In this document: one piece after another, positions 1,333-19,410 of the stretch
Layout: each line of letters opens with the position of its first letter
Position numbering within the stretch: position 1 is the stretch's first letter
Assembly (NCBI GenBank): GCA_900555605.1
Contig: USLW01000003.1
Span: forward strand, 1-19,564
DNA from: an uncultured Clostridium sp.
GTDB lineage: Bacteria > Bacillota > Clostridia > UBA1212 > UBA1255
DNA: 19,564 nt
Direction: 5' to 3'
Made by a program: the position numbers and the translations under genes
Notes under the pieces: generated by a model
The model's database searches: none
What the model saw: the letters and a program-made list of their open reading frames with translations, nothing else
What the model was told of the DNA's origin: nothing

Positions 1333-1409
1333 GGATCATTAGCTCAGTTGGTCAGAGCTACCGGCTCATAACCGGTTGGTCCGGGGTTCGAGTCCCTGAT
1401 GATCCACCA
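1333..1409 (+). tRNA. tRNA with CAU anticodon (elongator Met, or Ile2)
   Basis: A complete 77-nt cloverleaf is visible. The acceptor stem GGATCAT pairs with ATGATCC, followed by discriminator A and an encoded CCA. The D-arm is GCTC/GAGC, the anticodon stem ACCGG/CCGGT encloses loop CTCATAA with anticodon CAT, and the T-arm is CGGGG TTCGAGT CCCTG. The first acceptor pair is a proper G-C and the anticodon stem lacks the three consecutive GC pairs of initiators, so this is not initiator tRNA. CAU could be elongator methionine or the lysidine-modified Ile2 isoacceptor; sequence by eye does not settle it. A terminator follows immediately. Confidence 0.95.
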
Positions 1410-2372: not shown

Positions 2373-3260
2373 TTACTCTGCTGAAAGAATAATGCTCTGC
2401 AATCTCTTTAAGAATTGCTCTGCTGCTCTTGAAAACACCTGATACTTTTTCCACACGATGCAAAGACCGGCTTCAAGTGTCGGAGAAAGCGGACGGAAGC
2501 ATAATTCACTCTCTCCCGTAGTGTTGACGAGCTTATCTAAAGCGATTGCATAGCCAAATCCTTTTTTTACAAAATGGGAAGCGTTATAAATCAAATCATA
2601 AGTTGTTACAATGTTCATCTTCGAGATGTCACGCTTCATCCAAGCCGACATCTCACTGCTTGCAGTGGTCTGATGAGAAATAATCAAAGGTTTGTCCCAT
2701 AAATCCTCGGCACAGACTGTTTCTTTTTCTGCAAGTGGACTGTCTTTTCGCATGAGGACACCCCAAGTATCTTTTTGTGGCAAGCGCATATAGTCATACT
2801 TTGTAATATCCACAGGCTCGACCAATAATCCAAAATCAATCAATCCTTTGTCAAGCCGCTCGGTCACATGATTTGCGTCACCGCTGTAAATATGATAACG
2901 GATTAACGGATGTTCTTTCTGCAAATCTTTTGCTGCCTGTGCGATAACATAAATTGCGTCCGTTTCACCACCGCCGATATATACATCTCCGCTTATATTT
3001 TCATCGGAAGCGGAAAGCTCTGCCTTTGTCTTTTCCATTAAATCAACAAGTTCCTCCGCCCGTTTGCGGAGCAGCATACCGTCCTCTGTCAAGGTTACCT
3101 TTTTGCTTCCCCGAATCAGCAGTTGTTTTCCGAGTTCTTCTTCCAAATCTTTTAATTGTCTCGACAGCGGTGGCTGAGTCATATGCAGGACTTCAGCCGC
3201 TTTTGTTATACTTTCCTCTCTGGCGACAGCAAGAAAATATCCCAATACGCGAATGTCCAT
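2373..3260 (-). CDS. LysR-family transcriptional regulator (module A)
   Basis: This is a 295-residue LysR-type regulator with an N-terminal winged HTH (residues 1-60; AAEVLHMTQPPLSRQLKDLE is the recognition region), a linker helix, and a C-terminal periplasmic-binding-like effector domain from about residue 90 (DVYIGGGETDAIYVIAQAA). The ATG at 3260 is chosen because GGGAGG precedes it and the family N-terminus starts there; the open frame extends 44 codons further upstream without support. It is divergent from the redox operon starting at 3387, the classical layout for a LysR activator of its neighbour. The regulator at 9054 is a close paralogue over the whole length, with blocks such as SRQLKDLEEELGKQL and TGESxLCFRPLSP identical. 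The inducer is unknown. Confidence 0.95.
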   Translation of the reverse strand: MDIRVLGYFLAVAREESITKAAEVLHMTQPPLSRQLKDLEEELGKQLLIRGSKKVTLTEDGMLLRKRAEELVDLMEKTKAELSASDENISGDVYIGGGETDAIYVIAQAAKDLQKEHPLIRYHIYSGDANHVTERLDKGLIDFGLLVEPVDITKYDYMRLPQKDTWGVLMRKDSPLAEKETVCAEDLWDKPLIISHQTTASSEMSAWMKRDISKMNIVTTYDLIYNASHFVKKGFGYAIALDKLVNTTGESELCFRPLSPTLEAGLCIVWKKYQVFSRAAEQFLKRLQSIILSAE

Positions 3261-3310: not shown

Positions 3311-3337
3311 GTATGCGACTCAATATAATATATGTAT

Positions 3338-3365
3338 TTGATATTTTTACGCTTCTGAGTATAAT
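3338..3365 (+). promoter_or_regulatory. Promoter of the module A redox operon
   Basis: TTGATA (3338-3343), 16-bp spacer, TATAAT (3360-3365), then AAGGAGG and the first gene at 3387. The stretch TATTTGATATTTTTA at 3335-3349 resembles the left half of the LysR-type box found upstream of both module B operons, but its right half is degenerate and its distance to the -10 differs. Confidence 0.72.
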
Positions 3366-3386: not shown

Positions 3387-3620
3387 ATGCAAAAAAGCAC
3401 AAAGTCAAACCGGGATTTGACAGATATTTTGAAAGATGCAGGATGTGACGAGGCGTTGGAAAAGCAGCTAATCGTATTGAAACAGACCGGACAGACAGAC
3501 GAGTTCCTGCGATTACTTGCAAAACACAAAACAAGCCTGCTCGCAGATCTGCACAGAGTTCAAAAGCGCATCGACTGCCTTGACTTTTTGGTTTACAAAA
3601 TAAAAAAAGAAACGATTTAG
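3387..3620 (+). CDS. Small helical protein, paralogue of the 16480 gene
   Basis: I do not recognise a named family for this 77-residue soluble protein. It is predicted mostly helical. Its pattern is an N-terminal ILKDAGCDE, a middle helix, and the C-terminal block SLLADLHRVQKRIDCLDFLVYKIKK. The gene at 16480 encodes a clear paralogue with the same start (LKDAGCDE) and C-terminal block (LLDDLHKDQKQIDCLDYLVYKL). The C-terminal part recalls the dimerisation helix of MerR-type regulators, without a DNA-binding domain. AAGGAGG stands 7 nt before the ATG. It is the first gene of the operon and its stop codon overlaps the ribosome binding site of the dehydrogenase. A regulatory or scaffold role is only a guess. 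Confidence 0.85.
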   Translation: MQKSTKSNRDLTDILKDAGCDEALEKQLIVLKQTGQTDEFLRLLAKHKTSLLADLHRVQKRIDCLDFLVYKIKKETI

Positions 3621-6930: not shown

Positions 6931-8493
6931 ATGAAACGCATAACAGCAGTTTTAATGACATTGATTCTTTTGCTCTGTTTTACTGCCTGCGGAAATCAAC
7001 CGGTGGAGAAAAATCCATCTTCAACGGTATCGTCCGTTGAAGATACTGCCACATCCCCAAATACTGATACAGAAGAAGGTGAAAATACAGATATGAATCA
7101 AGAACAGAATATGGAAAGCTCCAAGCAACCGAAGCCGGACCCTGATAATAATATCTTGGTAGCATATTTCTCCTGCACCAATACAACGGAAGGGATTGCG
7201 GAAATCATTGCAGACGAAACAGGCGGTGCGCTCTATGAGATCGTGGCGGCCGATCCCTATACAGAGGACGATTTGAAGTATTATACCAACGGTCGTGCCG
7301 ACAAAGAGCAGGCTGATTCCTCCTGCCGCCCGGCAATTTCAGGTTCGGTAAGTGATATGTCAGCGTATGATACTGTATTTATTGGTTATCCGATCTGGCA
7401 TGGGCAAGCGCCGAGAATTATCAGTACATTTCTTGAAAGCTACGATTTTTCAGGAAAGACAATTATACCGTTTTGCACCTCGCATAGCAGCGGAATCGGT
7501 TCAAGTGACAGCGATCTGCATTCCCTCACTTCTGACTCTGCTGTTTGGATGGAAGGCAAAAGATTTTCAAGCAGTTCTGATAAATCCGAAATCACGGAAT
7601 GGGTTAAAATGTTGAACCTTGATACACAACAACCATCTGCTGCCAATCGTGATGTTTCGTCTTTTAATCTTGCTTCGGGTAAAAATGGCAGCGCCCCTAC
7701 CGTTATGCTGAACAGCGGATATGAGATGCCGATTTTGGGGCTTGGGACATATTCTTTACATGGAGATACCGTAAAGAGTTCTGTTACGGCTGCGTTGAAC
7801 CACGGTGTTCGTTTGATTGATACTGCCTATATGTACGGAAATGAAAAAGAAATCGGGGAGGCAATCCGAGCTTCTGATGTTCCGAGAGAAGAAATTTTCG
7901 TTATCACGAAAATCTATCCGGGCGAACAGTTTGCAAATCCTGAAAAGGCGATTCAGGACGCCCTTGATACGCTTGATATTGATTATATTGATATGATGCT
8001 CCTGCACCATCCCGGTGAAAACGATGTGAAAGCCTACCTTGCCATTGAAAAGTTTGTGGAACAAGGAAAAATACGCTCTATTGGGCTTTCTAATTGGTAT
8101 ATCGAGGAAATTGACGATTTTATAGCGCAAGTCAACATCAAACCTGCCCTAATACAAAATGAAATTCATCCCTACTATCAGGAAAAAGAAGTTGTTGCGT
8201 ATATGCATGGTCTCGGCATTGTCATGCAAGCGTGGTATCCGTTTGGCGGCAGAGGTCATACAGGTGAAATCTTTGCAAATGAAACGATCAGCTCTATTGC
8301 CGAGTCACACGGTGTTTCCCCGGCACAGGTTATTTTGCGTTGGCATTTGCAGCGTGGTATCGTTGCGATCCCCGGCTCAAGCAACCCGGATCACATTCTC
8401 GAAAATATCTCCGTTTTTGATTTTGAACTGACGGACAAGGAAATGGAGGATATTGCTGCTCTTGACCGAAACGAAAAGCATGATTGGTACTAA
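6931..8493 (+). CDS. Lipoprotein: flavodoxin domain fused to aldo/keto reductase
   Basis: This 520-residue protein starts with a lipoprotein signal peptide (MKR, hydrophobic core, lipobox FTAC with lipidated C20). A Ser/Thr/Asp/Glu-rich linker runs to about residue 72. A flavodoxin domain (about 74-228) opens with NILVAYFSCTNTTEGIA, where SCTNTTEG is the FMN phosphate loop, and contains IGYPIWHGQAP. An aldo/keto reductase domain (about 257-520) follows, with D297, Y302, K327 and H359 as the catalytic tetrad and VAIPGSSNPDHI for the nucleotide phosphate. Both domains look intact and the frame is continuous. The export signal implies action outside the membrane, where free NADPH is not expected, so the electron source is a puzzle. 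It follows the soluble flavoprotein by 16 bp. Confidence 0.92.
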   Translation: MKRITAVLMTLILLLCFTACGNQPVEKNPSSTVSSVEDTATSPNTDTEEGENTDMNQEQNMESSKQPKPDPDNNILVAYFSCTNTTEGIAEIIADETGGALYEIVAADPYTEDDLKYYTNGRADKEQADSSCRPAISGSVSDMSAYDTVFIGYPIWHGQAPRIISTFLESYDFSGKTIIPFCTSHSSGIGSSDSDLHSLTSDSAVWMEGKRFSSSSDKSEITEWVKMLNLDTQQPSAANRDVSSFNLASGKNGSAPTVMLNSGYEMPILGLGTYSLHGDTVKSSVTAALNHGVRLIDTAYMYGNEKEIGEAIRASDVPREEIFVITKIYPGEQFANPEKAIQDALDTLDIDYIDMMLLHHPGENDVKAYLAIEKFVEQGKIRSIGLSNWYIEEIDDFIAQVNIKPALIQNEIHPYYQEKEVVAYMHGLGIVMQAWYPFGGRGHTGEIFANETISSIAESHGVSPAQVILRWHLQRGIVAIPGSSNPDHILENISVFDFELTDKEMEDIAALDRNEKHDWY

Positions 8494-9053: not shown

Positions 9054-9938
9054 TTATGTTTTTATAAGTTCCTGCAATTTTTCAAGGAATTTTTCAGCCG
9101 GCTTACTGAGCATCTGATATTTTTTCCATACGACGTTCAATCTGGTCTCAAGTTTTGGAGACAGAGGTCTGAAACATAGATTACTCTCTCCGGTGGAATT
9201 GATGATATGGTTCAGACACAGCGCATAGCCCATTCTTTCCTCCACCATCAGCGAGCCGTTGAAAAGAAGATTATAGGTGGCAACAATATTAAGTTCATCC
9301 GGCTCTTTACCCAGCCATTCAAACAGTCCCCGGCTCTTATTGACTGCTTGCCGGGAAACGATCAATGGTTTATCCCACAAGTCTTCCGGGATAATCATTC
9401 TTTTTTCTGACAGTGGCGCATCACGCCGCATGAGGACGCCCCATTCGTCTTTTGCGGGAATTCGAAGATAATTGTACTCCGATAAATCGGTAGGTTCAAA
9501 AAGCACGCCGAAATCAAGCAGTCCCTTGTCTAACTGCTCTATGACATCGGTGGCATCGCCACTTGAAATATGGAAACAGATTTTGGGATAACTCGCTTGC
9601 ACTTGATTTGCCGCCCTTGCGAGAATACGCACAGCGTCGGTTTCGCCTGCACCGATATAAATATTGCCTGATAAGCTGTCGTCTGAAAGTATGATTTCAT
9701 CTTCAGTCTTTTTTACTAACTGTACGATCTCTTCCGCTCTTTTGCGGAGCGTCATTCCTTCGTCTGTCAGGGTTATTTTACGGTTTCCCCGAATAAAAAG
9801 CTGTTTGCCGAGTTCTTCTTCCAAATCTTTTAACTGACGCGATAGAGTTGGCTGTGAAAGATGCAGATATTCTGCTGCGCCAGAAACGCTCTGCTCTCTG
9901 GCTACTGCAAGAAAATATTGTAAAACTCTAAATTCCAT
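9054..9938 (-). CDS. LysR-family transcriptional regulator (module B)
   Basis: This 294-residue LysR-type regulator has its winged HTH at residues 1-60 (AAEYLHLSQPTLSRQLKDLE) and effector domain from about residue 90 (NIYIGAGETDAVRILARAA). It is a full-length paralogue of the module A regulator; domain order, length and most residues of the HTH agree. The ATG at 9938 is preceded by AGGAGGAG. It is divergent from the Ntn-amidase operon, with a LysR-type box in the shared intergenic region at 10006-10020. The same box recurs before the second module B operon at 15725-15739, so this protein is the best candidate to control both. The effector is unknown. Confidence 0.95.
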   Translation of the reverse strand: MEFRVLQYFLAVAREQSVSGAAEYLHLSQPTLSRQLKDLEEELGKQLFIRGNRKITLTDEGMTLRKRAEEIVQLVKKTEDEIILSDDSLSGNIYIGAGETDAVRILARAANQVQASYPKICFHISSGDATDVIEQLDKGLLDFGVLFEPTDLSEYNYLRIPAKDEWGVLMRRDAPLSEKRMIIPEDLWDKPLIVSRQAVNKSRGLFEWLGKEPDELNIVATYNLLFNGSLMVEERMGYALCLNHIINSTGESNLCFRPLSPKLETRLNVVWKKYQMLSKPAEKFLEKLQELIKT

Positions 9939-9996: not shown

Positions 9997-10055
9997 ATAG
10001 ATAAGTATTTGATATAAGTATTTTCTATTTTTCAATGCGATTGCTATACTATAAT
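9997..10055 (+). promoter_or_regulatory. LysR-type box and promoter of operon B1
   Basis: The box TATTTGATATAAGTA (10006-10020) is an imperfect dyad TAnTT-N5-AAnTA with the T-N11-A spacing of LysR sites, inside two direct copies of ATAAGTATTT 13 bp apart. A poor -35 (TTTCTA, 10022-10027) starts 2 bp after the box, 17 bp before TATACT (10045-10050); an overlapping TATAAT is at 10050-10055. A weak -35 next to an activator site is typical of LysR-activated promoters. Confidence 0.72.
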
Positions 10056-10092: not shown

Positions 10093-11196
10093 ATGAAAAG
10101 AACGATCGTTTTATTTTGTGTACTTGCCGCTATTGTAACTTTGTCAGCAGGCTGCGGTAAAAATGCAGAGTCGCCTGTCAGTACAGATGCCGAGCGTACA
10201 CAGAGCATTGAAACAGAAAACAATACCACCGTTATAACGCCGAGTACAACGGTTACCGAATTGGAAAGCGGTCTGTCCGCCGTAAAATATGAAGGAAACT
10301 CCATGTTCGATGAATTTCTTGCACAAGGCGGCGCTTCCTCCGATGCAGCGGTTGTTGCGTTTCTTTCTCAAAACCTGTTCTCTGGTGCAAACGGGCTTTC
10401 TTTTGACGGAATGCCGTTCGGGTGCAGCACGATATCGGTTAAGGACGAAAACGGCGACTCCTTGTTCGGCAGAAACTTCGACTGGAATACCTGCAACGCC
10501 ATGATCGTACAAAGCAAGCCGGAGAGCGGCTATGCCTCTATATCCACAGTCAACACGGATTTTATCAATATGAGCGGAATGCGGCTGTCCGACCTGCCGG
10601 ATCAGGCACAGGCTGTCATCTGTCTGTATGCTCCGCTGGACGGCATGAATGAAAAGGGGCTTGCCGTTTCGGTCAATATGATTCAGGACAATGCGACGAT
10701 CAATCAAGATACAGATAGACCGGATATCACAACGACAACGGCAATTCGCCTGCTGCTGGATCAGGCGGCAGATGTAGGCGAAGCAGTTGAACGATTGCAG
10801 CAGTACGATATGCACGCCTCTATGGGATATATGATGCACATAGCGCTTGCCGACTGCAACGGAAAAAGCGTGGTTGTCGAGTATGTGAACAACGAAATGA
10901 TCGTTACCGAAACGCCGGTTGTCACCAACTTCTATCTTACAGAGGGAGAGAAAAACGGCATCGGAACAGCGCAGTCCCATGAACGGTACGATATTTTGAC
11001 AAAAGCGCTGACCGACCGGCAAACCATGAGTATGGATGATGTGCGTGACGCTCTCGGCAGTGTGAGCAAAAAGAACTTCGGAGAATTTGAATCGACCGAG
11101 TGGAGCATTGTATTCAATCAAAGCACAGGCGAGGTGCATTACTACCACAGAGAAAATTACGACATACAATACACCTTTCAGATCGAAGCGAGGTGA
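10093..11196 (+). CDS. Lipoprotein Ntn-hydrolase, choloylglycine hydrolase-like (linear amide C-N hydrolase)
   Basis: This 367-residue protein has a lipoprotein signal (lipobox LSAGC, C21), a Ser/Thr-rich spacer, and from about residue 105 a choloylglycine-hydrolase/C45-type Ntn-hydrolase domain. C111 in FGCSTIS is the presumed nucleophile, and GRNFDW (R127, D130) is the family hallmark. NEKGLAVSVN (N186, N195), TNF (N279) and SHERYD (R298) fit the remaining active-site positions. The family cleaves or forms linear amide bonds in bile-salt conjugates, penicillin V or acyl-amino acids. The nucleophile lies deep in the chain, so autoproteolysis before C111 would be needed to free it, as in C45-like relatives. 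AAGGAGG is 12 nt before the ATG. It heads operon B1 with an adenylating enzyme and an ABC transporter. The substrate is not shown by sequence. Confidence 0.9.
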   Translation: MKRTIVLFCVLAAIVTLSAGCGKNAESPVSTDAERTQSIETENNTTVITPSTTVTELESGLSAVKYEGNSMFDEFLAQGGASSDAAVVAFLSQNLFSGANGLSFDGMPFGCSTISVKDENGDSLFGRNFDWNTCNAMIVQSKPESGYASISTVNTDFINMSGMRLSDLPDQAQAVICLYAPLDGMNEKGLAVSVNMIQDNATINQDTDRPDITTTTAIRLLLDQAADVGEAVERLQQYDMHASMGYMMHIALADCNGKSVVVEYVNNEMIVTETPVVTNFYLTEGEKNGIGTAQSHERYDILTKALTDRQTMSMDDVRDALGSVSKKNFGEFESTEWSIVFNQSTGEVHYYHRENYDIQYTFQIEAR

Positions 11197-11201
11197 ATCG
11201 T

Positions 11202-12572
11202 GTGAAATACTTAAAGCTGCTTTGCGAGCTATATCGGCTGAAGCAGAATACAAAGAAAACGAGGGAACAAATCGCCGATTTACAGGAGGAAAAACTGCGA
11301 AGCCTGCTGCGGTTCTCCTATCAACATTCCGCTTTTTACCGCAAGACCTTTGAAAAGAATGGAATTACCGCAGAGAATATCGACGCCTGCCCGCTCTCAG
11401 CATTTCCCACGATGGATAAAAAAACATTACTGGAGCATTTTGATGAGCTTGTCACAGTTCCGGATTTAAAGCAAGAAGAACTTCGCCGGTTTGATGCCGA
11501 AGAAAAAGCCGATCGCAGACCGTACAAAGATAAATATCATATCGTGCATTCCTCCGGCAGCACCGGAAAGCCGGGATACTTTGTTTATGATGAGGCGGCA
11601 TGGAACAATATGCTGTTGGGGATTATTCGTGCCGCTCTATGGAATATGTCCATGCCGCAAATATTAAGGCTGCTTGCCAAAGGTCCACGCATTGTCTACA
11701 TTGCGGCAACGGACGGTCGATACGGCGGAGCGATGGCAGTGGGCGACGGTATTGACGGCGTTCACGCCAAACAGCTGTATCTGGATATTAAAACGCCGCT
11801 TACCGAGTGGATTAGCCAAATCAGGGAATTCAAGCCGAATATGATTATCGGTTATCCTTCTGCAATTAAAATACTCGGTGAACTGGTAGAACGCGGAGAG
11901 GTTCGGTTAAATATCTTCCGTGTCATCTCCTGCGGCGAACCGCTGGGAGCCAGTCTGCGGCATTACTTAGAAGAAGTTTTTCAGGCCGAGGTCATTAACT
12001 TTTACGGTGCAAGCGAATCCCTTGCACTCGGTGTGGAAATGAGTCCCGCAGACGGAATGATTCTCTTCGATGATCTGAATGTGATCGAGGTTGAAGACGG
12101 CAATATGTATCTGACCTCCCTATATAATTTTGCACAGCCGCTGATTCGCTACCGTCTGTCCGACAGTCTTACGCTCAAAGAGCCGGATGCAGACAGCGGG
12201 TATCCGTTTACCGGCGCTGTAGGGCTGCTGGGGAGAAACGAAGATATTTTGTGGTTTGAGGACGGAAACGGTCATCGGGAGTTTCTCCATCCGCTTGCAG
12301 TGGAAGGCATTTGCATCGAGGGACTTCGTGATTATCAGTTCCGACAGATTAGTCCGGATGCTTTTGAAATGCTTGCAGAAATTACCGAAACAGCATCAGA
12401 GAACGCCATTCGTGCTGAGATTCTAACGCAGATGAAAGGGATACTTATGGAAAAGAATCTCTGCTATGTGCAGTTCTATGTGAAGTTTGTGAATGAAATC
12501 CTTCCGAACACACAGACCGGGAAAAAGAATCTGATTATAAAAGACACAGAACGAATGGAGGCGGTGAGATGA
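11202..12572 (+). CDS. PaaK/CapK-like adenylate-forming enzyme
   Basis: This 456-residue protein is an ANL-superfamily enzyme nearest to phenylacetate-CoA ligase/CapK proteins, which activate a carboxylate with ATP. Core motifs are present: HSSGSTGKPG (about 116-125), YGASES, RYRLSD, and a C-terminal TQTGKKNLI with the expected lysine. Length is normal. GTG at 11202 is chosen as start because AGGTGA, overlapping the previous stop codon, lies 5 nt before it; the frame stays open to 11100 within the amidase gene but without support. It is translationally coupled to the ABC ATPase gene by a 4-bp overlap (ATGA). The acyl substrate and acceptor are unknown; a carrier protein gene is not visible nearby. 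In context it may activate an acid for amide formation or recycle one freed by the amidase. Confidence 0.88.
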   Translation: MKYLKLLCELYRLKQNTKKTREQIADLQEEKLRSLLRFSYQHSAFYRKTFEKNGITAENIDACPLSAFPTMDKKTLLEHFDELVTVPDLKQEELRRFDAEEKADRRPYKDKYHIVHSSGSTGKPGYFVYDEAAWNNMLLGIIRAALWNMSMPQILRLLAKGPRIVYIAATDGRYGGAMAVGDGIDGVHAKQLYLDIKTPLTEWISQIREFKPNMIIGYPSAIKILGELVERGEVRLNIFRVISCGEPLGASLRHYLEEVFQAEVINFYGASESLALGVEMSPADGMILFDDLNVIEVEDGNMYLTSLYNFAQPLIRYRLSDSLTLKEPDADSGYPFTGAVGLLGRNEDILWFEDGNGHREFLHPLAVEGICIEGLRDYQFRQISPDAFEMLAEITETASENAIRAEILTQMKGILMEKNLCYVQFYVKFVNEILPNTQTGKKNLIIKDTERMEAVR

Positions 12573-13330
12573 AAGATATCGTGCTGCAAGCGAAAAACCT
12601 GTGCAAATCTTTTGCGCAGGGCGGCAAAGAAGCGCAAATACTGAAATCCGTCACAGTCGATATTTATAAAGGTGATTTTACAGTGATTATGGGTTCGTCC
12701 GGAGCGGGAAAATCTACCTTATTATACGCTTTAAGCGGTATGGACAGCATTACCGGCGGAACGGTCATACTTGACGGAGTGGAAATCAGTCGCTTTAACG
12801 AAAAGAAAATGGCAGAGCTTCGGGCAAAACGGTTCGGATTTGTCTTTCAGCAGACGCACCTTGTGAGCAATCTTACCCTCTTTGAAAATGTTGCCGTGGC
12901 AGGCTATGTCAGCAGGACACAGGATATGAAAACGGTTCGGGAGCGTGCAAATCAGCTTCTTTGCAGGATGCACGCAGAGGAAGCGAAAGACCGTCTGCCT
13001 TCTCAGGTGTCCGGAGGTGAAGCACAAAGGGCGGCAATCGCAAGAGCCATGATGAACTGTCCTGAAATCCTGTTTGCAGATGAACCGACCGGCGCGCTGA
13101 ACAAGTCAAACAGTGAGCAAGTGCTAAATCTGCTGAGCGGTTTACACGAAAACGGACAAAGCATTCTGATGGTTACGCATGACATTCGGGCGGCTGTCCG
13201 CGGAAACCGCATTCTGTATCTGGAAGACGGGAACATTTTAGATGAGTTGGAACTGCCCGCCTTTCACGCAGAAGAACTGCAAAAAAGAGAGTCTAAAGTC
13301 AATGAATGGCTTACTTCTTTGCAGTGGTAA
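12569..13330 (+). CDS. ABC transporter ATP-binding protein (MacB/LolD type)
   Basis: This 253-residue ATPase drives the FtsX-type permease encoded next. Walker A is GSSGAGKST (42-50), the Q-loop lies at Q94-Q95 (FVFQQTHL), the signature is VSGGEAQR (147-154), Walker B is ILFADEPTGAL (167-177) and the H-loop histidine is H204 (MVTHD). The Q-loop/DEPTGALN pattern is the hallmark of the MacB/LolCDE/FtsE subfamily, which exports or extracts substrates, or works mechanically, rather than importing through a binding protein. A 40-residue C-terminal tail follows the core. Its ATG overlaps the stop of the preceding gene by 4 bp and the permease starts 12 bp downstream. Confidence 0.95.
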   Translation: MKDIVLQAKNLCKSFAQGGKEAQILKSVTVDIYKGDFTVIMGSSGAGKSTLLYALSGMDSITGGTVILDGVEISRFNEKKMAELRAKRFGFVFQQTHLVSNLTLFENVAVAGYVSRTQDMKTVRERANQLLCRMHAEEAKDRLPSQVSGGEAQRAAIARAMMNCPEILFADEPTGALNKSNSEQVLNLLSGLHENGQSILMVTHDIRAAVRGNRILYLEDGNILDELELPAFHAEELQKRESKVNEWLTSLQW

Positions 13331-13342
13331 GGAGGTCTTGCT

Positions 13343-15691
13343 GTGGAATACAGAACGCTGTTAAAAGCAAATCTGAAAAAACACAAAGGCGGACTGACAG
13401 GCGTTTTTATCCTCATGCTGTTGGTGGCGGCTTCTCTTGGGACGGTGCTGTCCGTATGGACAAATTCAGGTGCATATATCCGAAACGAAATGCAGAGAGC
13501 CGGTTTTGGAGAACTGACCGCTTGGGTTTCGGGCGTTCCCGATACAAAACAATTGATCGGAGATATCGAATCTCTTGAAGCGGTTGACCGAATTGAGACG
13601 CAGACAGTTATTTTCTCCAATTACACCGCAAACGAGCAGGAATCTGACAGCGAGGGGCAGCTGATCACCTTTGCTTCGGAAGAAAACCGCTACCGCTTTT
13701 TTACGGACGATTTATCCGATTATACCGACGCTCCCCATCAAATTCAGCCGGGAGAGGTCTATGTATCACCGTCTATGGTTTCCATGTTCGGTATACAGAT
13801 CGGCGATGAAATTACCTTTCCCATTGCGAGAGCCGGAAAAAACAAGATATTGACCGTAAAGGGCTTTTACGAAGATCCGTTTATGGGAAGCTCCATGATC
13901 GGAATGAAGGGCTTTCTCATTTGCGAGAACGACCGTGCAGAAATTCTCTCGATTCTGCAAAACGCCGGCATTGATGCGTTAGCTCGGAATGGCACAATGC
14001 TTCATATTTTTTCTTCTGACAACACGATGACCGTTTCAGAACTAAACAGTATGATCAATGGAAATACAGCCCTTGCAGAGTATACCGAGTTTGTGCACAG
14101 CAACGATGCCATTGCGGGCTTTATGCTGGTTCTGCAAAACGCTTTCAGCGGACTGCTGGTCGCATTTGTCGCTGTTCTTCTGTTTGTTGTGCTGATCGTG
14201 CTCAGCCACAGTATCAGCAGCACCATTGAAGCGGATACGGTCAATATGGGGATTTTGAAAACGATCGGCTTTACCTCACGCAAGCTGCGGCTGATTCAGC
14301 TTTGGCAATATCTCATCGGGATGATTGCCGGAATGGTGTGCGGGCTATTGCTCTCCATTCCTTTGAGTCGGGTGGTAAGCAGCATGACGCTGACCACCAC
14401 CGGTATTCGGATTCCCACCGCTTTGCCTTTGGCGTGGATCGCCTTGTCTTTCATGGCAATATTGCTTCTCTTGGCAGGCTTCATCCTCTTGCGGACACGA
14501 AAGATCGGCAGGATCACGCCGATGAAAGCCATTCGGGGTGAAACGGAAGCAGTGCGGTTTCATCCTCAGAAATCTGTCTCCGCTTTTGGAAAATGCGTTC
14601 CATTAAGACTTGCGTTCCGTCAGCTTGTGATAGGAAAACGTCGTTACATTGGTGCGCTGACCGTGGCAGTCGTTTTGGTGTTTTTTGCCTCTCTTGTGGG
14701 GCGGATGAATGCATGGTTAGGTGCAGACGGCAAAGGGATGATGGATGCCTTTAACCCGGCAGATCATGACATCGGCGTACAGGTATTCGGCGATTTAACC
14801 GCAGAGGAAGCAGAGAACATGGTTCGTTCCTATACGGATATTACCGACACCTACCTGTTGGCTATGCCGGGCGTGGCGGTCAACGGTGTGGACTATACGG
14901 CGAATGTGATTTCGGAGCCGGAACGCTTTCATATTTTAGAAGGCCGAACCTGCACAGCGGATAACGAAATCGTATTGACTGAGTTTGTAGCGGCAAGCTT
15001 CGGCGTTTCCGTCGGCGATACGGTCACGGTTCGGGGTGACAGCGGCAGCGGCGAATATACCGTATCCGGTATCTATTCCTGCGCCAACGACATGGGCGAT
15101 AATATCGGCATGAGCCGTGAGGGATACTTAAAAATCGGACGGGATAATCCGCACATTTGGTGCTGGCATTATTTCCTTGCAGACACTTCACAGAAGGCGG
15201 CGATTACACAGGCGCTGGAGGACGCTTACGGCGGTGATGTCCACGTGCATGAAAACACATGGCCGGGGCTGTTCGGAATCATTTCTGCCATGCACCTGCT
15301 AATCGTGTTTATGTATGTCATGGTGATCGTCTTTATTTTAATTGTAACCGTAATGACCGGCAGTAAAATCCTATCAGCGGAACAGAAGGATTTAGGAATC
15401 TATAAAGCGGTCGGTTTTGGGTCAAGAGAGTTGAGACTCACTTTTGCTCTTCGTTTCGGAATGGTTGCGATGATTGGCTCTGTGATAGGGACAATTCTTG
15501 CCTCTCTTTTTACCGATCCGCTGGTGTCGGCAGTCATGAAGCTGGCGGGAATCAGCAATTTTGCCTCCGCTCCATCGGTCGGAAGCGTTCTTCTCCCGGC
15601 AGGCGTTGTGATCCTGCTCTTTACCGGCTTTGCATATTTTGAAGCGGGCAAAATAAAGAATACCAATCCGACAATATTGATCAGCGAATAG
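13343..15691 (+). CDS. ABC transporter permease with two FtsX domains
   Basis: This 782-residue membrane protein is the partner of the ATPase just upstream. One N-terminal membrane helix (about 14-37) is followed by an extracytoplasmic MacB-PCD-like domain to about 240, then three helices of a first FtsX domain (about 255-385). A further helix near 437 leads into a second outer domain, and three helices form the last FtsX domain (about 655-775), for eight in total. The coupling-helix region KTIGFTSRKLRLIQ recurs as KAVGFGSRELRLTF in the second half, showing the internal duplication. Start is GTG at 13343 with AAGGAGG 7 nt upstream. One polypeptide thus supplies both transmembrane halves, unlike homodimeric MacB. 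Substrate is unknown; the amidase and adenylating enzyme in the same operon hint at a small amide or acyl compound. Confidence 0.93.
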   Translation: MEYRTLLKANLKKHKGGLTGVFILMLLVAASLGTVLSVWTNSGAYIRNEMQRAGFGELTAWVSGVPDTKQLIGDIESLEAVDRIETQTVIFSNYTANEQESDSEGQLITFASEENRYRFFTDDLSDYTDAPHQIQPGEVYVSPSMVSMFGIQIGDEITFPIARAGKNKILTVKGFYEDPFMGSSMIGMKGFLICENDRAEILSILQNAGIDALARNGTMLHIFSSDNTMTVSELNSMINGNTALAEYTEFVHSNDAIAGFMLVLQNAFSGLLVAFVAVLLFVVLIVLSHSISSTIEADTVNMGILKTIGFTSRKLRLIQLWQYLIGMIAGMVCGLLLSIPLSRVVSSMTLTTTGIRIPTALPLAWIALSFMAILLLLAGFILLRTRKIGRITPMKAIRGETEAVRFHPQKSVSAFGKCVPLRLAFRQLVIGKRRYIGALTVAVVLVFFASLVGRMNAWLGADGKGMMDAFNPADHDIGVQVFGDLTAEEAENMVRSYTDITDTYLLAMPGVAVNGVDYTANVISEPERFHILEGRTCTADNEIVLTEFVAASFGVSVGDTVTVRGDSGSGEYTVSGIYSCANDMGDNIGMSREGYLKIGRDNPHIWCWHYFLADTSQKAAITQALEDAYGGDVHVHENTWPGLFGIISAMHLLIVFMYVMVIVFILIVTVMTGSKILSAEQKDLGIYKAVGFGSRELRLTFALRFGMVAMIGSVIGTILASLFTDPLVSAVMKLAGISNFASAPSVGSVLLPAGVVILLFTGFAYFEAGKIKNTNPTILISE

Positions 15692-15715: not shown

Positions 15716-15769
15716 ATAGATAAGTATTTAATATAAGTATTTACTATATATGAGCAAACAGAGTATAAT
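15716..15769 (+). promoter_or_regulatory. LysR-type box and promoter of operon B2
   Basis: Positions 15716-15747 match 9997-10028 at 30 of 32 bases. The box is TATTTAATATAAGTA (15725-15739), followed by a poor -35 (TTACTA, 15741-15746), 17 bp, and TATAAT (15764-15769). The box-to-(-10) distance equals that of operon B1. Only a weak 5-bp hairpin (15690-15708) separates it from the B1 stop codon, so read-through from B1 is also possible. Confidence 0.75.
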
Positions 15770-15843: not shown

Positions 15844-16452
15844 ATGAAAAAGATTTCTTTCATACTTGCTTTATTTCTCGCACTTACGCTTACATTTACC
15901 GGATGCAGCGATTCCAATACGGATCGGAGTCAAGGTGATGGTACCTCTCAGAGGACGGAAGGCCAAAACCAAGACAGCAGACCTAATAGTACGAATAGCG
16001 AAACAGGCGAAGATACCAATTCTGGTGAAAATCCCAACAGAACGACCGAACTTGAGGTTTGCTTCGGTGACGACGGCGCTCCCTTTATCCTGCATCTGTA
16101 CGACAACGATACAGCGGCAGCGATTGCTCGCCATGTGGGTACAGCCAATTGGAGACTCCCGATTTATCATTATGACGATTACGATAACTGGGAAGTCATG
16201 CAGTATTACGACGTTCCTTCAAGATATGAGATTCCATCCAATCCTGAAACCGTAACCTCAGAAAAGGCAGGAGAAGTTTACTACTCAGCGCCGAACCGTA
16301 TTGTCCTTTTCTTCGGAGACGCTGAGGTTACCGGCGAATACACAAAGGTTGGTTACTTTGACTATACCGAAGAATTCAAAGCTGCTGTTGAGAACAATCC
16401 GGTATTGGAAGGTTGGGATACAAAGATGGTTCTAATCAATCGTGTAGACTGA
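15844..16452 (+). CDS. Lipoprotein with divergent cyclophilin-like domain
   Basis: This 202-residue protein has a lipoprotein signal (MKK, hydrophobic core, lipobox FTGC with C21), then an Asn/Ser/Thr/Glu-rich linker to about residue 72, then a globular domain. LEVCFGDDGAPFILHLYDND, YDVPSRYEIPSNPET, GEVYYSAPNRIVLFFGD and TKVGYF follow the order of cyclophilin-like (Cyclophil_like2) proteins, which share the peptidyl-prolyl isomerase fold without proven activity. The resemblance is weaker than for the lipoprotein at 18826. The start is the ATG at 15844 with AGGAAAGGA upstream; the open frame begins earlier at 15802 but the signal peptide fixes the start. It is the first gene of operon B2. Ligand and function are unknown. 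Confidence 0.85.
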   Translation: MKKISFILALFLALTLTFTGCSDSNTDRSQGDGTSQRTEGQNQDSRPNSTNSETGEDTNSGENPNRTTELEVCFGDDGAPFILHLYDNDTAAAIARHVGTANWRLPIYHYDDYDNWEVMQYYDVPSRYEIPSNPETVTSEKAGEVYYSAPNRIVLFFGDAEVTGEYTKVGYFDYTEEFKAAVENNPVLEGWDTKMVLINRVD

Positions 16453-16479: not shown

Positions 16480-16710
16480 ATGAACAACGAAAATGCCATC
16501 ATTCAGAACTTAAAAGATGCGGGCTGTGATGAAGATACCATTCAGACCTTCGTAGAAGATCTGCGGAAAGAAAAAGTAGCGGAGGGGCTGAAGCTGCTGG
16601 CAACGCACAGACGCTCCCTGCTGGATGACCTTCATAAAGACCAAAAGCAGATTGACTGTCTTGACTATTTGGTTTACAAGCTTGAAAAAGACCAAAAAAT
16701 GAAAGCATAG
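16480..16710 (+). CDS. Small helical protein, paralogue of the 3387 gene
   Basis: This 76-residue soluble, highly charged, helical protein is not a recognised named family. It shares LKDAGCDE near the N-terminus and LLDDLHKDQKQIDCLDYLVYKL at the C-terminus (written here as one 22-residue region, residues about 48-69, key residues L-L-x-D-L-H, Q-K-x-I-D-C-L-D) with the protein encoded at 3387. Both are embedded in LysR-controlled redox operons, which suggests a common accessory role. The single cysteine in IDCLD is conserved between copies. The ribosome binding site is weak (AAGAGAAAAGAG). Confidence 0.84.
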   Translation: MNNENAIIQNLKDAGCDEDTIQTFVEDLRKEKVAEGLKLLATHRRSLLDDLHKDQKQIDCLDYLVYKLEKDQKMKA

Positions 16711-16733: not shown

Positions 16734-17585
16734 ATGACTATGATTACAGGTAAAACCTTTGATGAAGAAAGAGCCTTATACGGGCAGCAGGATATTGTCG
16801 TGAAAAACTGCAATTTTGACGGTCCGGCAGACGGCGAGAGCGCCTTTAAGGAAGGCAAAGAGATCACAGTGGAAAACTGCTTTTTCAATCTCCGCTATCC
16901 CTTCTGGCATGACGATGGGCTGAAAATTGCCGAATCGGAAATGACCGAGCTTTGCCGTGCGGCGCTGTGGTACTCGCACGATATTCAAATCAGCGATACC
17001 AAGCTGCACGGAATCAAAGCACTGCGTGAATGCGGAAATGTCAGAATGCGTGGATGCGATATTATTTCACCGGAATTTGGATGGTCGGTTCAAGGTATCG
17101 ACATGGAGGACTGCACCGCTGAAAGCGAATATTTTATGATGCGCTCCGATCATCTGCATTTTCGAAATGTGCGCATGAAGGGCAAATATTCCTTCCAGTA
17201 CATCACCGATTCGGTATTTGAGGACTGCACCTTTGACACAAAAGACGCTTTCTGGCACGCAAAAAACATCACAGTCAGAAACAGCGTTGTAAAGGGCGAA
17301 TATCTGGCATGGTACAGCGAGAATGTCACCTTTGAAAACTGCCAAATCATCGGCACACAGCCTCTTTGCTACTGCAAAAACCTGAAGCTGATAAACTGTG
17401 AGATGATCGACACTGATTTGAGCTTTGAGCGCTCTGACTTGGAAGCGACCTTGACGGCTCCGATTGTCAGCATTAAAAACCCACTTTCCGGTCATATCTA
17501 TGTGCCGGAGGTCGGAAAAATCATCATGGATATTCCCGACGCCAAAGGCGAGATACTCACGAGAAAGCAGTGCTGCTGTGCATAA
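16734..17585 (+). CDS. DUF3737 family protein (parallel beta-helix)
   Basis: This 283-residue protein matches DUF3737. It begins with TGKTFDEERALYGQQDIVVKN in outline and consists of short repeats of the type ITVENCFF, IQISDTKL, VRMRGCDI, ITVRNSVV and VTFENCQI, the pattern of a right-handed parallel beta-helix related to pectin-lyase folds. No signal peptide or membrane segment is visible, so it is probably cytoplasmic. Histidine and tryptophan residues recur (FWHDDG, WYSHDI, FWHAKN), and the tail ends in CCCA. GGAGGG is 9 nt before the ATG. DUF3737 genes are often near LysR regulators and reductases in Firmicutes; no enzyme activity is established. Confidence 0.9.
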   Translation: MTMITGKTFDEERALYGQQDIVVKNCNFDGPADGESAFKEGKEITVENCFFNLRYPFWHDDGLKIAESEMTELCRAALWYSHDIQISDTKLHGIKALRECGNVRMRGCDIISPEFGWSVQGIDMEDCTAESEYFMMRSDHLHFRNVRMKGKYSFQYITDSVFEDCTFDTKDAFWHAKNITVRNSVVKGEYLAWYSENVTFENCQIIGTQPLCYCKNLKLINCEMIDTDLSFERSDLEATLTAPIVSIKNPLSGHIYVPEVGKIIMDIPDAKGEILTRKQCCCA

Positions 17586-18825: not shown

Positions 18826-19410
18826 ATGATGAAACGGCTATTTAGCATTTTGTTGTCGCTTATGATTTTAATTACTGTTACTGCCTGCAGCAACGGAGAC
18901 AAAGGAGAAATTCCCGGCTCGGGTTCCACATCTGACAATACAGTATCTGAATCCGGAACACAATCCAAAACGCCCTCGGCATCCGATACAGAATCCGAAT
19001 CAACAGAGCCGGATTCTCAACCCAATACAGATCAGGAGGAAAAAGAGACTATGATGAACATTCAAATTGGCGATCATCTGCTTACCGCTATCCTTGTGGA
19101 GAACTCCTCTACGGAAGCCTTAATCGAACTGCTGAAGGACGGTCCGATCACAATTGACATGAACGATTACGCCAGCATGGAAAAAGTCGGCCCGTTTCCG
19201 CAAAGCCTTCCGAGAAACGACGAGCAGATCAGCACAGACGCAGGAGACTTGATTTTATATCAGGGCAACTCGTTCGTGATCTACTACGATACCAACTCGT
19301 GGAATTTCACAAGGCTTGGAAAGATCAATGATGTAACCAAACAAGAATTAAGAGATATTCTGGGAAGCGGAAGCGTAACGGCTGTACTGTCCCTTCCCGC
19401 AGAATCATGA
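18826..19410 (+). CDS. Lipoprotein with cyclophilin-like domain
   Basis: This 194-residue protein has a lipoprotein signal (lipobox VTAC, C21) and a very Ser/Thr/Glu/Asp-rich linker to about residue 75. A canonical cyclophilin-like domain follows: MNIQIGDHLLTAILVENSST in outline, FPQSLPRNDEQISTDAGDLILYQGN split around 120-145, SFVIYYDTNSWNFTRLGKI and LGSGSVTAVLSL. Two adjacent ATGs are possible; the second (18829) is 8 nt after AGGAGG and may be the true start. Inside the gene another AGGAGG (19034-19039) precedes ATGATG at 19051, exactly at the start of the cyclophilin-like domain. Stand-alone cytoplasmic versions of this domain are common, so the gene looks like such a protein with an added lipoprotein leader. 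It belongs to operon B2. Confidence 0.92.
   Translation: MMKRLFSILLSLMILITVTACSNGDKGEIPGSGSTSDNTVSESGTQSKTPSASDTESESTEPDSQPNTDQEEKETMMNIQIGDHLLTAILVENSSTEALIELLKDGPITIDMNDYASMEKVGPFPQSLPRNDEQISTDAGDLILYQGNSFVIYYDTNSWNFTRLGKINDVTKQELRDILGSGSVTAVLSLPAES

What the first reader, a model, noticed from the sequence alone, without database searches (positions are those of the whole stretch)
10093..15691. Surface amidase, PaaK/CapK-like ligase and FtsX exporter in one operon
An Ntn-hydrolase lipoprotein of the bile-salt-hydrolase/acyltransferase superfamily is co-transcribed and translationally chained with an adenylate-forming ligase and a MacB-type transporter. Established biochemistry: this Ntn family hydrolyses and sometimes forms linear amides, and PaaK-like enzymes activate carboxylates. 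The combination suggests making, exporting and cleaving (or detoxifying) an acyl-amide such as a bile-acid or fatty-acid amino-acid conjugate or a signal molecule. I do not know this trio as a described system.
Basis: inference. Interest (0 to 1): 0.75.

Follow-up and report, generated by a model that had tools for sequence, protein, structure and literature searches.

The report
LysR-controlled surface amidase–ligase–ABC operon
A gene set shared by many Clostridia, apparently mostly gut ones, pairs an enzyme on the cell surface that should cut amide-linked molecules with a carboxylate-activating enzyme inside the cell and an ATP-driven membrane machine, all under one dedicated switch, but nobody yet knows which molecule it handles.

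Summary
Window 10093-15691 carries an Ntn-hydrolase lipoprotein, a PaaK-like adenylate-forming enzyme, an ABC ATPase and a two-unit FtsX permease, tightly packed. It is not a chance neighbourhood: of 80 fetched ligase loci 67 have enough flank to judge, and 53 of these keep the four genes contiguous. In a 250-genome family sample all 13 genomes with the close ligase also have the close Ntn gene. New here: a LysR-type box (ATAAGTATTTNNTAT) lies before Ntn in 52 of 73 loci and before the next unit, Cyc1, in 35 of 64, against 1-5 hits before four other genes. In ten selected genomes the exact box occurs once or twice each; 14 of 17 sites are these two promoters and 3 lie 10-14 kb away. The Ntn precursor resembles bile-salt hydrolase and penicillin V acylase and, with its pro-segment, AAT, NAAA and acid ceramidase. 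Best mechanism (inferred): the type VII ABC machine presents a membrane-dissolved acyl amide to the surface amidase, and the ligase activates the freed acid. Make-export-mature is the main rival. Substrate unknown. No description was seen in the literature listings searched.

The parts
9054..9938 (-). LysR-type regulator, divergent to the operon
   Evidence: Pfam HTH_1 + LysR_substrate; a LysR homologue (>=50% identity) in 57 of 80 ligase loci, divergent next to Ntn in 34 of 67 judged loci
10001..10028 (+). Two overlapping LysR-type boxes (ATAAGTATTTGATAT, ATAAGTATTTTCTAT) in front of Ntn; -10-like TATACT at 10045-10050
   Evidence: box upstream of Ntn in 52 of 73 loci, 1.5 expected from dinucleotide shuffles
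10093..11196 (+). Ntn hydrolase precursor, lipoprotein (Cys21), pro-segment about 58-110, nucleophile Cys111
11202..12572 (+). PaaK-like adenylate-forming enzyme (ANL), GTG start
12569..13330 (+). ABC ATPase of the LolD/MacB type
   Evidence: ATGA overlap with the ligase
13343..15691 (+). FtsX permease, two FtsX units, two large extracellular domains, about 8 TM peaks by hydropathy
15720..15747 (+). Second tandem pair of the same boxes, in front of the Cyc1 unit; -10-like TATAAT at 15764-15769
   Evidence: box upstream of Cyc1 in 35 of 64 loci, 0.6 expected
15844..16452 (+). Cyc1: cyclophilin-like lipoprotein (PF18050), first gene of the co-regulated second unit
   Evidence: in 60 of 67 judged loci; Cys21 in 51 of 51 aligned
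16480..16710 (+). Small protein (76 aa), no Pfam family
16734..17585 (+). DUF3737 protein with a beta-helix match
   Evidence: in 52 of 67 judged loci at >=28% identity
17649..18260 (+). LysE-type exporter
   Evidence: in 47 of 67 judged loci at >=35% identity
18274..18813 (+). Flavodoxin-like FMN reductase, peripheral
   Evidence: 9 of 67 judged loci at >=50% identity; 17 sources in a looser clustering of 80 loci plus window
18826..19410 (+). Cyc2: second cyclophilin-like protein, lipoprotein-like N-terminus
   Evidence: in 43 of 67 judged loci at >=28% identity

Best explanation
A dedicated, LysR-controlled cell-envelope system of Clostridia that extracts, cleaves and activates an acyl amide. 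SHOWN BY SEQUENCE: a Cys-Ntn hydrolase precursor of the AAT/NAAA/penicillin-V-acylase fold with a lipoprotein signal, a PaaK-like adenylate-forming enzyme and a type VII (FtsX) ABC machine form one conserved operon. A LysR-type box nearly confined to this cluster stands before it and before a second unit that starts with a cyclophilin-like lipoprotein. INFERRED: the precursor is exported, anchored at Cys21 and cut at G110|C111, keeping its pro-segment as the alpha part as in NAAA and acid ceramidase. The ABC machine uses ATP-driven movement of its extracellular domains to lift an amphipathic acyl amide out of the membrane and offer it to the amidase, as is proposed for YbbAP with TesA and as saposin D does for acid ceramidase. 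The freed carboxylic acid re-enters and is trapped as acyl-AMP or acyl-thioester by the ligase. The LysR protein senses the amide or its product. The result is salvage or detoxification of an exogenous acyl amide; its identity is unknown.
Against: No substrate, binding or activity data. Direction of transport is not readable from sequence. Three loci (L039, L048, L074) keep Ntn and ligase without the ABC pair, and their genomes gave no permease at E <= 1e-40; remnants in L039 and, weakly, L048 suggest secondary loss, so the ABC is dispensable there. The YbbP match is short (best stretch 526-572, none passing alone), the single permease sequence found nothing in the PDB, it shows 8 TM peaks against the 10 helices of YbbP and misses the YbbP cut-off (37 against 999 bits). 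The Ntn model is the best of five (74.6; the others 39-45); the ligase model is middling (68.8, pTM 0.61). The fusion is a single cluster of 4 sequences. The ten genomes with the near-private box were chosen by me.
Confidence: 0.4

Rival explanations
1. Make-export-mature: the ligase activates a carboxylate and an amide (or ester) is formed, the FtsX transporter exports it, and the surface Ntn enzyme trims, transacylates or recycles it.
For: Same operon. PaaK-like relatives NatL2 and ClxA are listed in the PDB with aromatic-acid ligands; that they serve benzoxazole biosynthesis is recalled. Ntn enzymes of the AAT type can transfer acyl groups (family names). A distant Ntn relative (30% identity) directly follows a GH3-type amido-synthetase gene in one genome. 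Ntn and ligase persist where the ABC pair is lost, which fits a ligase-amidase core.
Against: No carrier protein, condensation domain or amine-adding enzyme among the window genes scanned. The GH3 pairing was adjacent in only 1 of 19 GH3-bearing genomes of the sample. That a producer would not need an inducible surface hydrolase is my inference only.
Confidence: 0.25
2. Resistance: the LysR protein senses an antimicrobial; the surface amidase cleaves it, the FtsX ABC protects the membrane, and the ligase modifies what enters.
For: Fold match to penicillin V acylase; patchy, accessory distribution (13 of 250 genomes); the PsdB lantibiotic permease is the second PDB match of the permease profile (E 3.7e-4); a response-regulator-like gene family occurs in the flanks of 16 of the loci (judged from its sequence); redox genes lie nearby.
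Against: No two-component genes among the window genes scanned; the ligase has no clear role in resistance; PADLOC matched only the ATPase (best mad3, 91.5 bits), a generic kind of hit.
Confidence: 0.2
3. Penicillin-pathway-like side-chain exchange: the ligase supplies acyl-CoA to the AAT-like Ntn enzyme.
For: Pfam AAT match of the Ntn protein and phenylacetate-CoA-ligase-family matches of its neighbour; the pairing of AAT with a phenylacetyl-CoA ligase in Penicillium is recalled, not searched.
Against: The Ntn protein carries a lipoprotein signal (Cys21 in 68 of 72) while no signal is seen by eye on the ligase, so acyl-CoA and the Ntn enzyme should be in different compartments.
Confidence: 0.05
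4. A loose collection of unrelated genes that happen to share one regulator.
For: The wider cluster is modular: LysE, DUF3737, Cyc2 and flavodoxin vary in order and presence, and 14 of 67 judged loci break the four-gene order.
Against: The four core genes stay contiguous in 53 of 67 judged loci; 13 of 13 co-occurrence of ligase and Ntn; invariant active sites.
Confidence: 0.05

Closest known systems
YbbAP-TesA of E. coli (type VII ABC transporter plus periplasmic hydrolase; PMC12646458)
   Same: Separate ATPase, long FtsX permease with two extracellular domains, extracytoplasmic hydrolase encoded nearby; YbbP is the best PDB sequence match of the permease profile
   Different: Hydrolase is a Cys-Ntn amidase lipoprotein, not a serine esterase; an adenylate-forming enzyme is in the operon; 8 rather than 10 TM peaks; far below the YbbP model cut-off
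Bile salt hydrolase / penicillin V acylase (CBAH family)
   Different: Lipoprotein signal and a conserved pro-segment; 39 bits against a cut-off of 350 for the bile-salt-hydrolase model
NAAA and acid ceramidase / AAT precursors
   Same: Alignment runs through the pro-segment (from model residue 58 or 61), matching the alpha/beta autoprocessing plan
   Different: 13-15% sequence identity to the precursors; lipid-amide substrate not tested; bacterial, membrane-anchored, linked to an ABC machine
PaaK and PaaK-like ligases (PaaK1/2, NatL2, ClxA)
   Different: Below the cut-off of each NCBIfam model it matched (TIGR02304 113 against 252, PaaK 63 against 646 bits); substrate unknown
Fatty-acid-amide gene clusters of gut Clostridia (Chang et al., as described in PMC13142362, passages read)
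   Same: Clostridia; stand-alone adenylate-forming enzyme
   Different: Those use free-standing adenylation, carrier and condensation proteins; no carrier or condensation domain was found in the window genes scanned

Membership tests
C45 autoproteolytic Ntn hydrolase/acyltransferase (NCBIfam NF040521) | Score above the curated cut-off of 85 bits | tested here: met
   98 bits
C45 autoproteolytic Ntn hydrolase/acyltransferase (NCBIfam NF040521) | Gly-Cys cleavage site with conserved nucleophile and catalytic set (residue roles recalled) | tested here: met
   G110, C111, R127, D130, N279, R298 in 72 of 72; N195 in 70 of 72
C45 autoproteolytic Ntn hydrolase/acyltransferase (NCBIfam NF040521) | Actual self-cleavage | not testable with these tools
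   needs protein
Bile salt hydrolase (NF038245) | Score above cut-off 350 | tested here: not met
   39 bits
NAAA / acid ceramidase type alpha-beta amidase | Structural match including the pro-segment | tested here: met
NAAA / acid ceramidase type alpha-beta amidase | Hydrolysis of fatty-acid amides | not testable with these tools
   no assay
PaaK phenylacetate-CoA ligase (TIGR02155) | Score above cut-off 646 | tested here: not met
   63 bits
F390 synthetase-related (TIGR02304) | Score above cut-off 251.9 | tested here: not met
   113.4 bits
ANL adenylate-forming enzymes | P-loop, YGxSE-type motif, hinge-side Asp, C-terminal Lys (motif names recalled) | tested here: met
   residues 116-122, 268-272, D321, R345, D348, K441 conserved in 73-78 of 78; Pfam AMP-binding 34 against 29.9
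Type VII (FtsX/MacB/LolCDE-like) ABC transporter | FtsX permease domain plus separate LolD/MacB-type ATPase and large extracellular domain | tested here: met
   FtsX 63 bits, MacB_PCD 37 bits, ABC_tran 112 bits; ATPase best NCBIfam match LolD, 216.5 bits, below its cut-off 307.75
YbbP | Score above model cut-off 999 | tested here: not met
   37 bits
YbbP | 10-helix membrane fold (as in PMC12646458) | tested here: inconclusive
   8 hydropathy peaks over 64 relatives; no structure of the permease was predicted
Type VII ABC-hydrolase complex | Physical complex and substrate hand-over | not testable with these tools
   no complex prediction available here
Gut fatty-acid-amide biosynthetic cluster | Carrier protein and condensation domain beside the adenylation enzyme | tested here: not met
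   none among the 18 window proteins scanned with Pfam

The most novel reading that the evidence does not exclude
Gut Clostridia carry an undescribed envelope machine in which an ATP-driven FtsX transporter pulls a host-, diet- or microbe-derived acyl amide from the membrane, feeds it to a lipid-anchored NAAA/ceramidase-like amidase and lets a coupled ligase capture the freed acid. This would be a bacterial counterpart of the saposin-ceramidase pair, switched on by a private LysR regulator that senses that amide.
Probability: 0.3. Interest if true: 0.75.

Novelty: new variant of a known kind. Interest (0 to 1): 0.56.

Why it matters
Acyl amides (conjugated bile acids, N-acyl amines, N-acyl amino acids) carry signals between gut bacteria and host. 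A conserved, probably inducible cluster in Clostridia whose surface enzyme has the fold of bile-salt hydrolases and human NAAA would add an unrecognised route for breaking or making such molecules. It would also add an ABC-plus-amidase case beside YbbAP-TesA. The near-private LysR box makes the inducer, and hence the substrate, directly testable with a reporter.

Tried and rejected
Own genome: not held, so phylogenetic profiling used the family of another genome (handle G004, in which L023, Schaedlerella arabinosiphila, lies).

Literature: ten full-text searches in an open-licence library, of which searches were about YbbAP-TesA, penicillin V acylases and NAAA. Searches returned nothing. One search returned one paper (PMC9600240), seen only in the listing. 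Searches held 54 and 91 papers, of which 20 and 15 were listed; I saw titles and abstract beginnings only. None of those seen described this gene set, but subscription papers are mostly not held and listings were capped, so absence in print is not proven. The Christensenella bile-salt-hydrolase paper (PMC8228234, passages) concerns an enzyme predicted to be intracellular and unlipidated; it is not this one.

Aldehyde or redox stress as the main role: Fe-ADH, AKR and flavodoxin genes next door suggested it, but they are seldom kept with the core (of 67 judged loci: flavodoxin 9 at >=50% identity, AKR-flavodoxin 7 at >=40%, ADH 1 at >=50%; a looser clustering gives 17 sources for flavodoxin and 11 for ADH), and the exact box is nearly confined to this cluster in ten genomes. 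One of the 17 exact boxes does lie before an ADH-like gene (29% identity, L093).

GH3-Ntn pairing as a rule: adjacent once (G115); not repeated adjacent in the other 18 GH3-bearing genomes of 250; G091 has both about 6 kb apart on opposite strands.

Ligase-ATPase fusion as strong evidence: one cluster of 4 sequences among the 120 hits listed in each of two searches.

Other Ntn contexts: among nine distant Ntn loci, L081 has type I ABC exporter genes next door and L089 an ABC ATPase (42%) and weak FtsX match (20%) 2.5-5 kb away; not pursued.

Mirror-tree correlations (r 0.47-0.85) had no species-tree baseline and are not used. Plasmids: all 185 ligase matches are under 60% identity, the 8 listed under 30%. 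Phages: one contig with a partial 38% Ntn match. Pentatricopeptide-protein matches of the Ntn profile are repeated weak local matches and were discarded.

Selections and corrections: rests on the best 80 of 170 confirmed ligase relatives; 13 of 80 had too little flank. Hits under the script's identity limits (28-50% by gene) were dropped; 'contiguous' means gaps under 400 nt between tblastn ends. My first box count (Ntn 54 of 75, Cyc1 36 of 65) included the window itself and one artefact (L004, truncated gene); one search leaves out the window, skips truncated cases (L004, L048, L070 for Ntn; L026 for the ligase) and uses dinucleotide shuffles. The ten genomes were chosen mostly because their loci showed a clear box. 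Of 1961, 5108 and 4742 protein hits only 120 each were listed. A1 and A2 used 20 of 120 each; A3 used the window and 16 loci.
Full report
OBSERVATION. The Ntn precursor (10093-11196) has a lipobox with Cys21 and a Gly110-Cys111 junction. The ligase most likely starts at GTG 11202, since relatives begin there, 5 nt after the Ntn stop. The ATPase start overlaps the ligase stop, and the permease follows 12 nt later. The operon is therefore Ntn-ligase-ATPase-permease.

CONSERVATION. A scan of species-representative genomes with a ligase alignment found 170 relatives, of which 80 loci were fetched. Their titles name Lachnospiraceae and other Clostridia or just 'bacterium'; none names another phylum. 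Many titles point to gut or faeces, but habitat was not tabulated. 67 of the 80 have at least 1500 nt upstream and 4000 nt downstream. Of these, Ntn is directly upstream in 58, ATPase directly downstream in 61, permease after it in 60, and all three in 53. Further neighbours in the 67: Cyc1 60, DUF3737 52, LysR 52 (34 divergent next to Ntn), LysE 47, Cyc2 43, flavodoxin 9. In 250 genomes of one family, 14 have a ligase match at E <= 1e-60. One of these is distant (31% identity); the other 13 all have an Ntn match at 6.1e-110 or better, in 10 of the 13 directly before the ligase by position. Sixteen further genomes have only other Ntn relatives. Ten of these were fetched: 30-46% identical to the window's Ntn and none with the ligase.

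EXCEPTIONS. Fourteen of the 67 break the order (L005, L021, L039, L046, L047, L057, L061, L062, L063, L073, L074, L078, L079, L080). L039 and L074, and L048 outside the 67, keep Ntn and ligase without the ABC pair, and their genomes gave no close permease. L039 holds a fragment matching permease residues 646-782 and L048 an 18-residue match (weak, E 0.11), so the ABC was probably lost secondarily. L046 has no Ntn nearby, but its genome has one on another contig. The genomes of L067 and L080 gave neither Ntn at E <= 1e-20 nor permease at E <= 1e-40, although L080 keeps a match to Ntn residues 303-367 before the ligase. The genome of L026, whose contig ends 85 nt before the ligase, gave no Ntn either. 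Such draft genomes may be incomplete. In L057, L060, L061, L073, L078 and L079 the LysR gene lies between Ntn and ligase.

REGULATION. Two copies of a 23-nt element, differing in one base, lie in front of Ntn (10001) and Cyc1 (15720); none were expected by chance. Each opens a pair of overlapping ATA-N9-TAT boxes, the LysR type (class name recalled), with a -10-like hexamer 16 nt downstream in both. Over the 80 fetched loci a box within 2 mismatches is found in the 250 nt upstream of Ntn in 52 of 73 (1.5 expected from dinucleotide shuffles) and of Cyc1 in 35 of 64 (0.6). Before other genes it is rare: ligase 5 of 79 (0.7), ATPase 2 of 73 (0.2), permease 1 of 70 (0.1), DUF3737 4 of 54 (0.4). 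The five ligase cases are all loci in which LysR stands directly before the ligase (L057, L060, L061, L062, L078). The exact form ATAAGTATTTGHTAT was sought in ten genomes of 2.1-6.5 Mb that I had selected. It gave 17 matches, one or two per genome, against 0 for the reversed control. Seven lie before Ntn, seven between permease and Cyc1, and three, in two genomes, on the ligase's contig about 10-14 kb away, beside a LysR gene (two) or before an ADH-like gene (one). That the adjacent LysR binds the box is inferred. This looks like a nearly private, two-promoter regulon, and it makes the Cyc1 unit part of the system.

THE ABC. The permease has two FtsX units and two large, strongly conserved extracellular domains, with 8 hydropathy peaks. 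Alone it found nothing in the PDB; its profile's best match is YbbP of YbbAP-TesA, by a short stretch (E 2.3e-4). That type VII system is proposed to lift hydrophobic compounds from the membrane for a bound hydrolase (PMC12646458, abstract and Discussion). The permease is not a YbbP by model score.

MECHANISM. I favour extract-cleave-activate (0.4) over make-export-mature (0.25) and resistance (0.2). Steps shown: gene content, conservation, active-site retention, shared regulatory boxes. Steps inferred: export and self-cleavage, ABC-amidase hand-over, re-entry and activation of the acid, inducer sensing.

KNOWN OR NEW. Each of the four core proteins belongs to a known superfamily; the combination and its LysR box were not seen described in the searches named. 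I file it as a new variant of the ABC-plus-hydrolase kind, by working likeness and not by proven membership.

Noticed in passing
P0097 (737 aa): Ligase and ABC ATPase fused in one protein, one cluster of 4 sequences on 5 contigs.
   Followed up: yes
L088:4934-7810: In genome G115 a distant Ntn relative (30% identity) directly follows a GH3-family amido-synthetase gene; not repeated adjacent in the 18 other GH3-bearing genomes of the sample.
   Followed up: yes
window 2373-3254 and 3330-3344: A second LysR, 57.6% identical to the first, with one near-match (1 mismatch) of the same box beside it, before an Fe-alcohol dehydrogenase and aldo-keto reductase genes.
   Followed up: partly
window 6931-8493: One reading frame joins a flavodoxin-like domain and an aldo-keto reductase behind a lipoprotein-like N-terminus.
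   Followed up: no
window 3387-3617 and 16480-16710: Two small proteins alike by eye and with no Pfam match; a family holding the first occurs in 30 of 81 sequences clustered.
   Followed up: partly
L090:13814-14761: Genome G004 has a second Ntn gene (57% identity) about 2.4 kb upstream of the operon copy.
   Followed up: no
flanks of the fetched loci: A response-regulator-like family is present in 16 loci and a long membrane protein family (median 494 aa) in 11; not annotated further.
   Followed up: no
L089:1361-7416: A distant Ntn gene with an ABC ATPase (42%) and a weak FtsX match (20%) 2.5-5 kb away on the same strand.
   Followed up: no
MT837906.1:146-757: A 6 kb unannotated 'Bacteriophage sp.' contig from human faeces encodes a partial 38%-identical Ntn match; it may be a bacterial fragment.
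   Followed up: no
window 1333-1406: tRNA gene, the only Rfam match at gathering threshold in the window.
   Followed up: no
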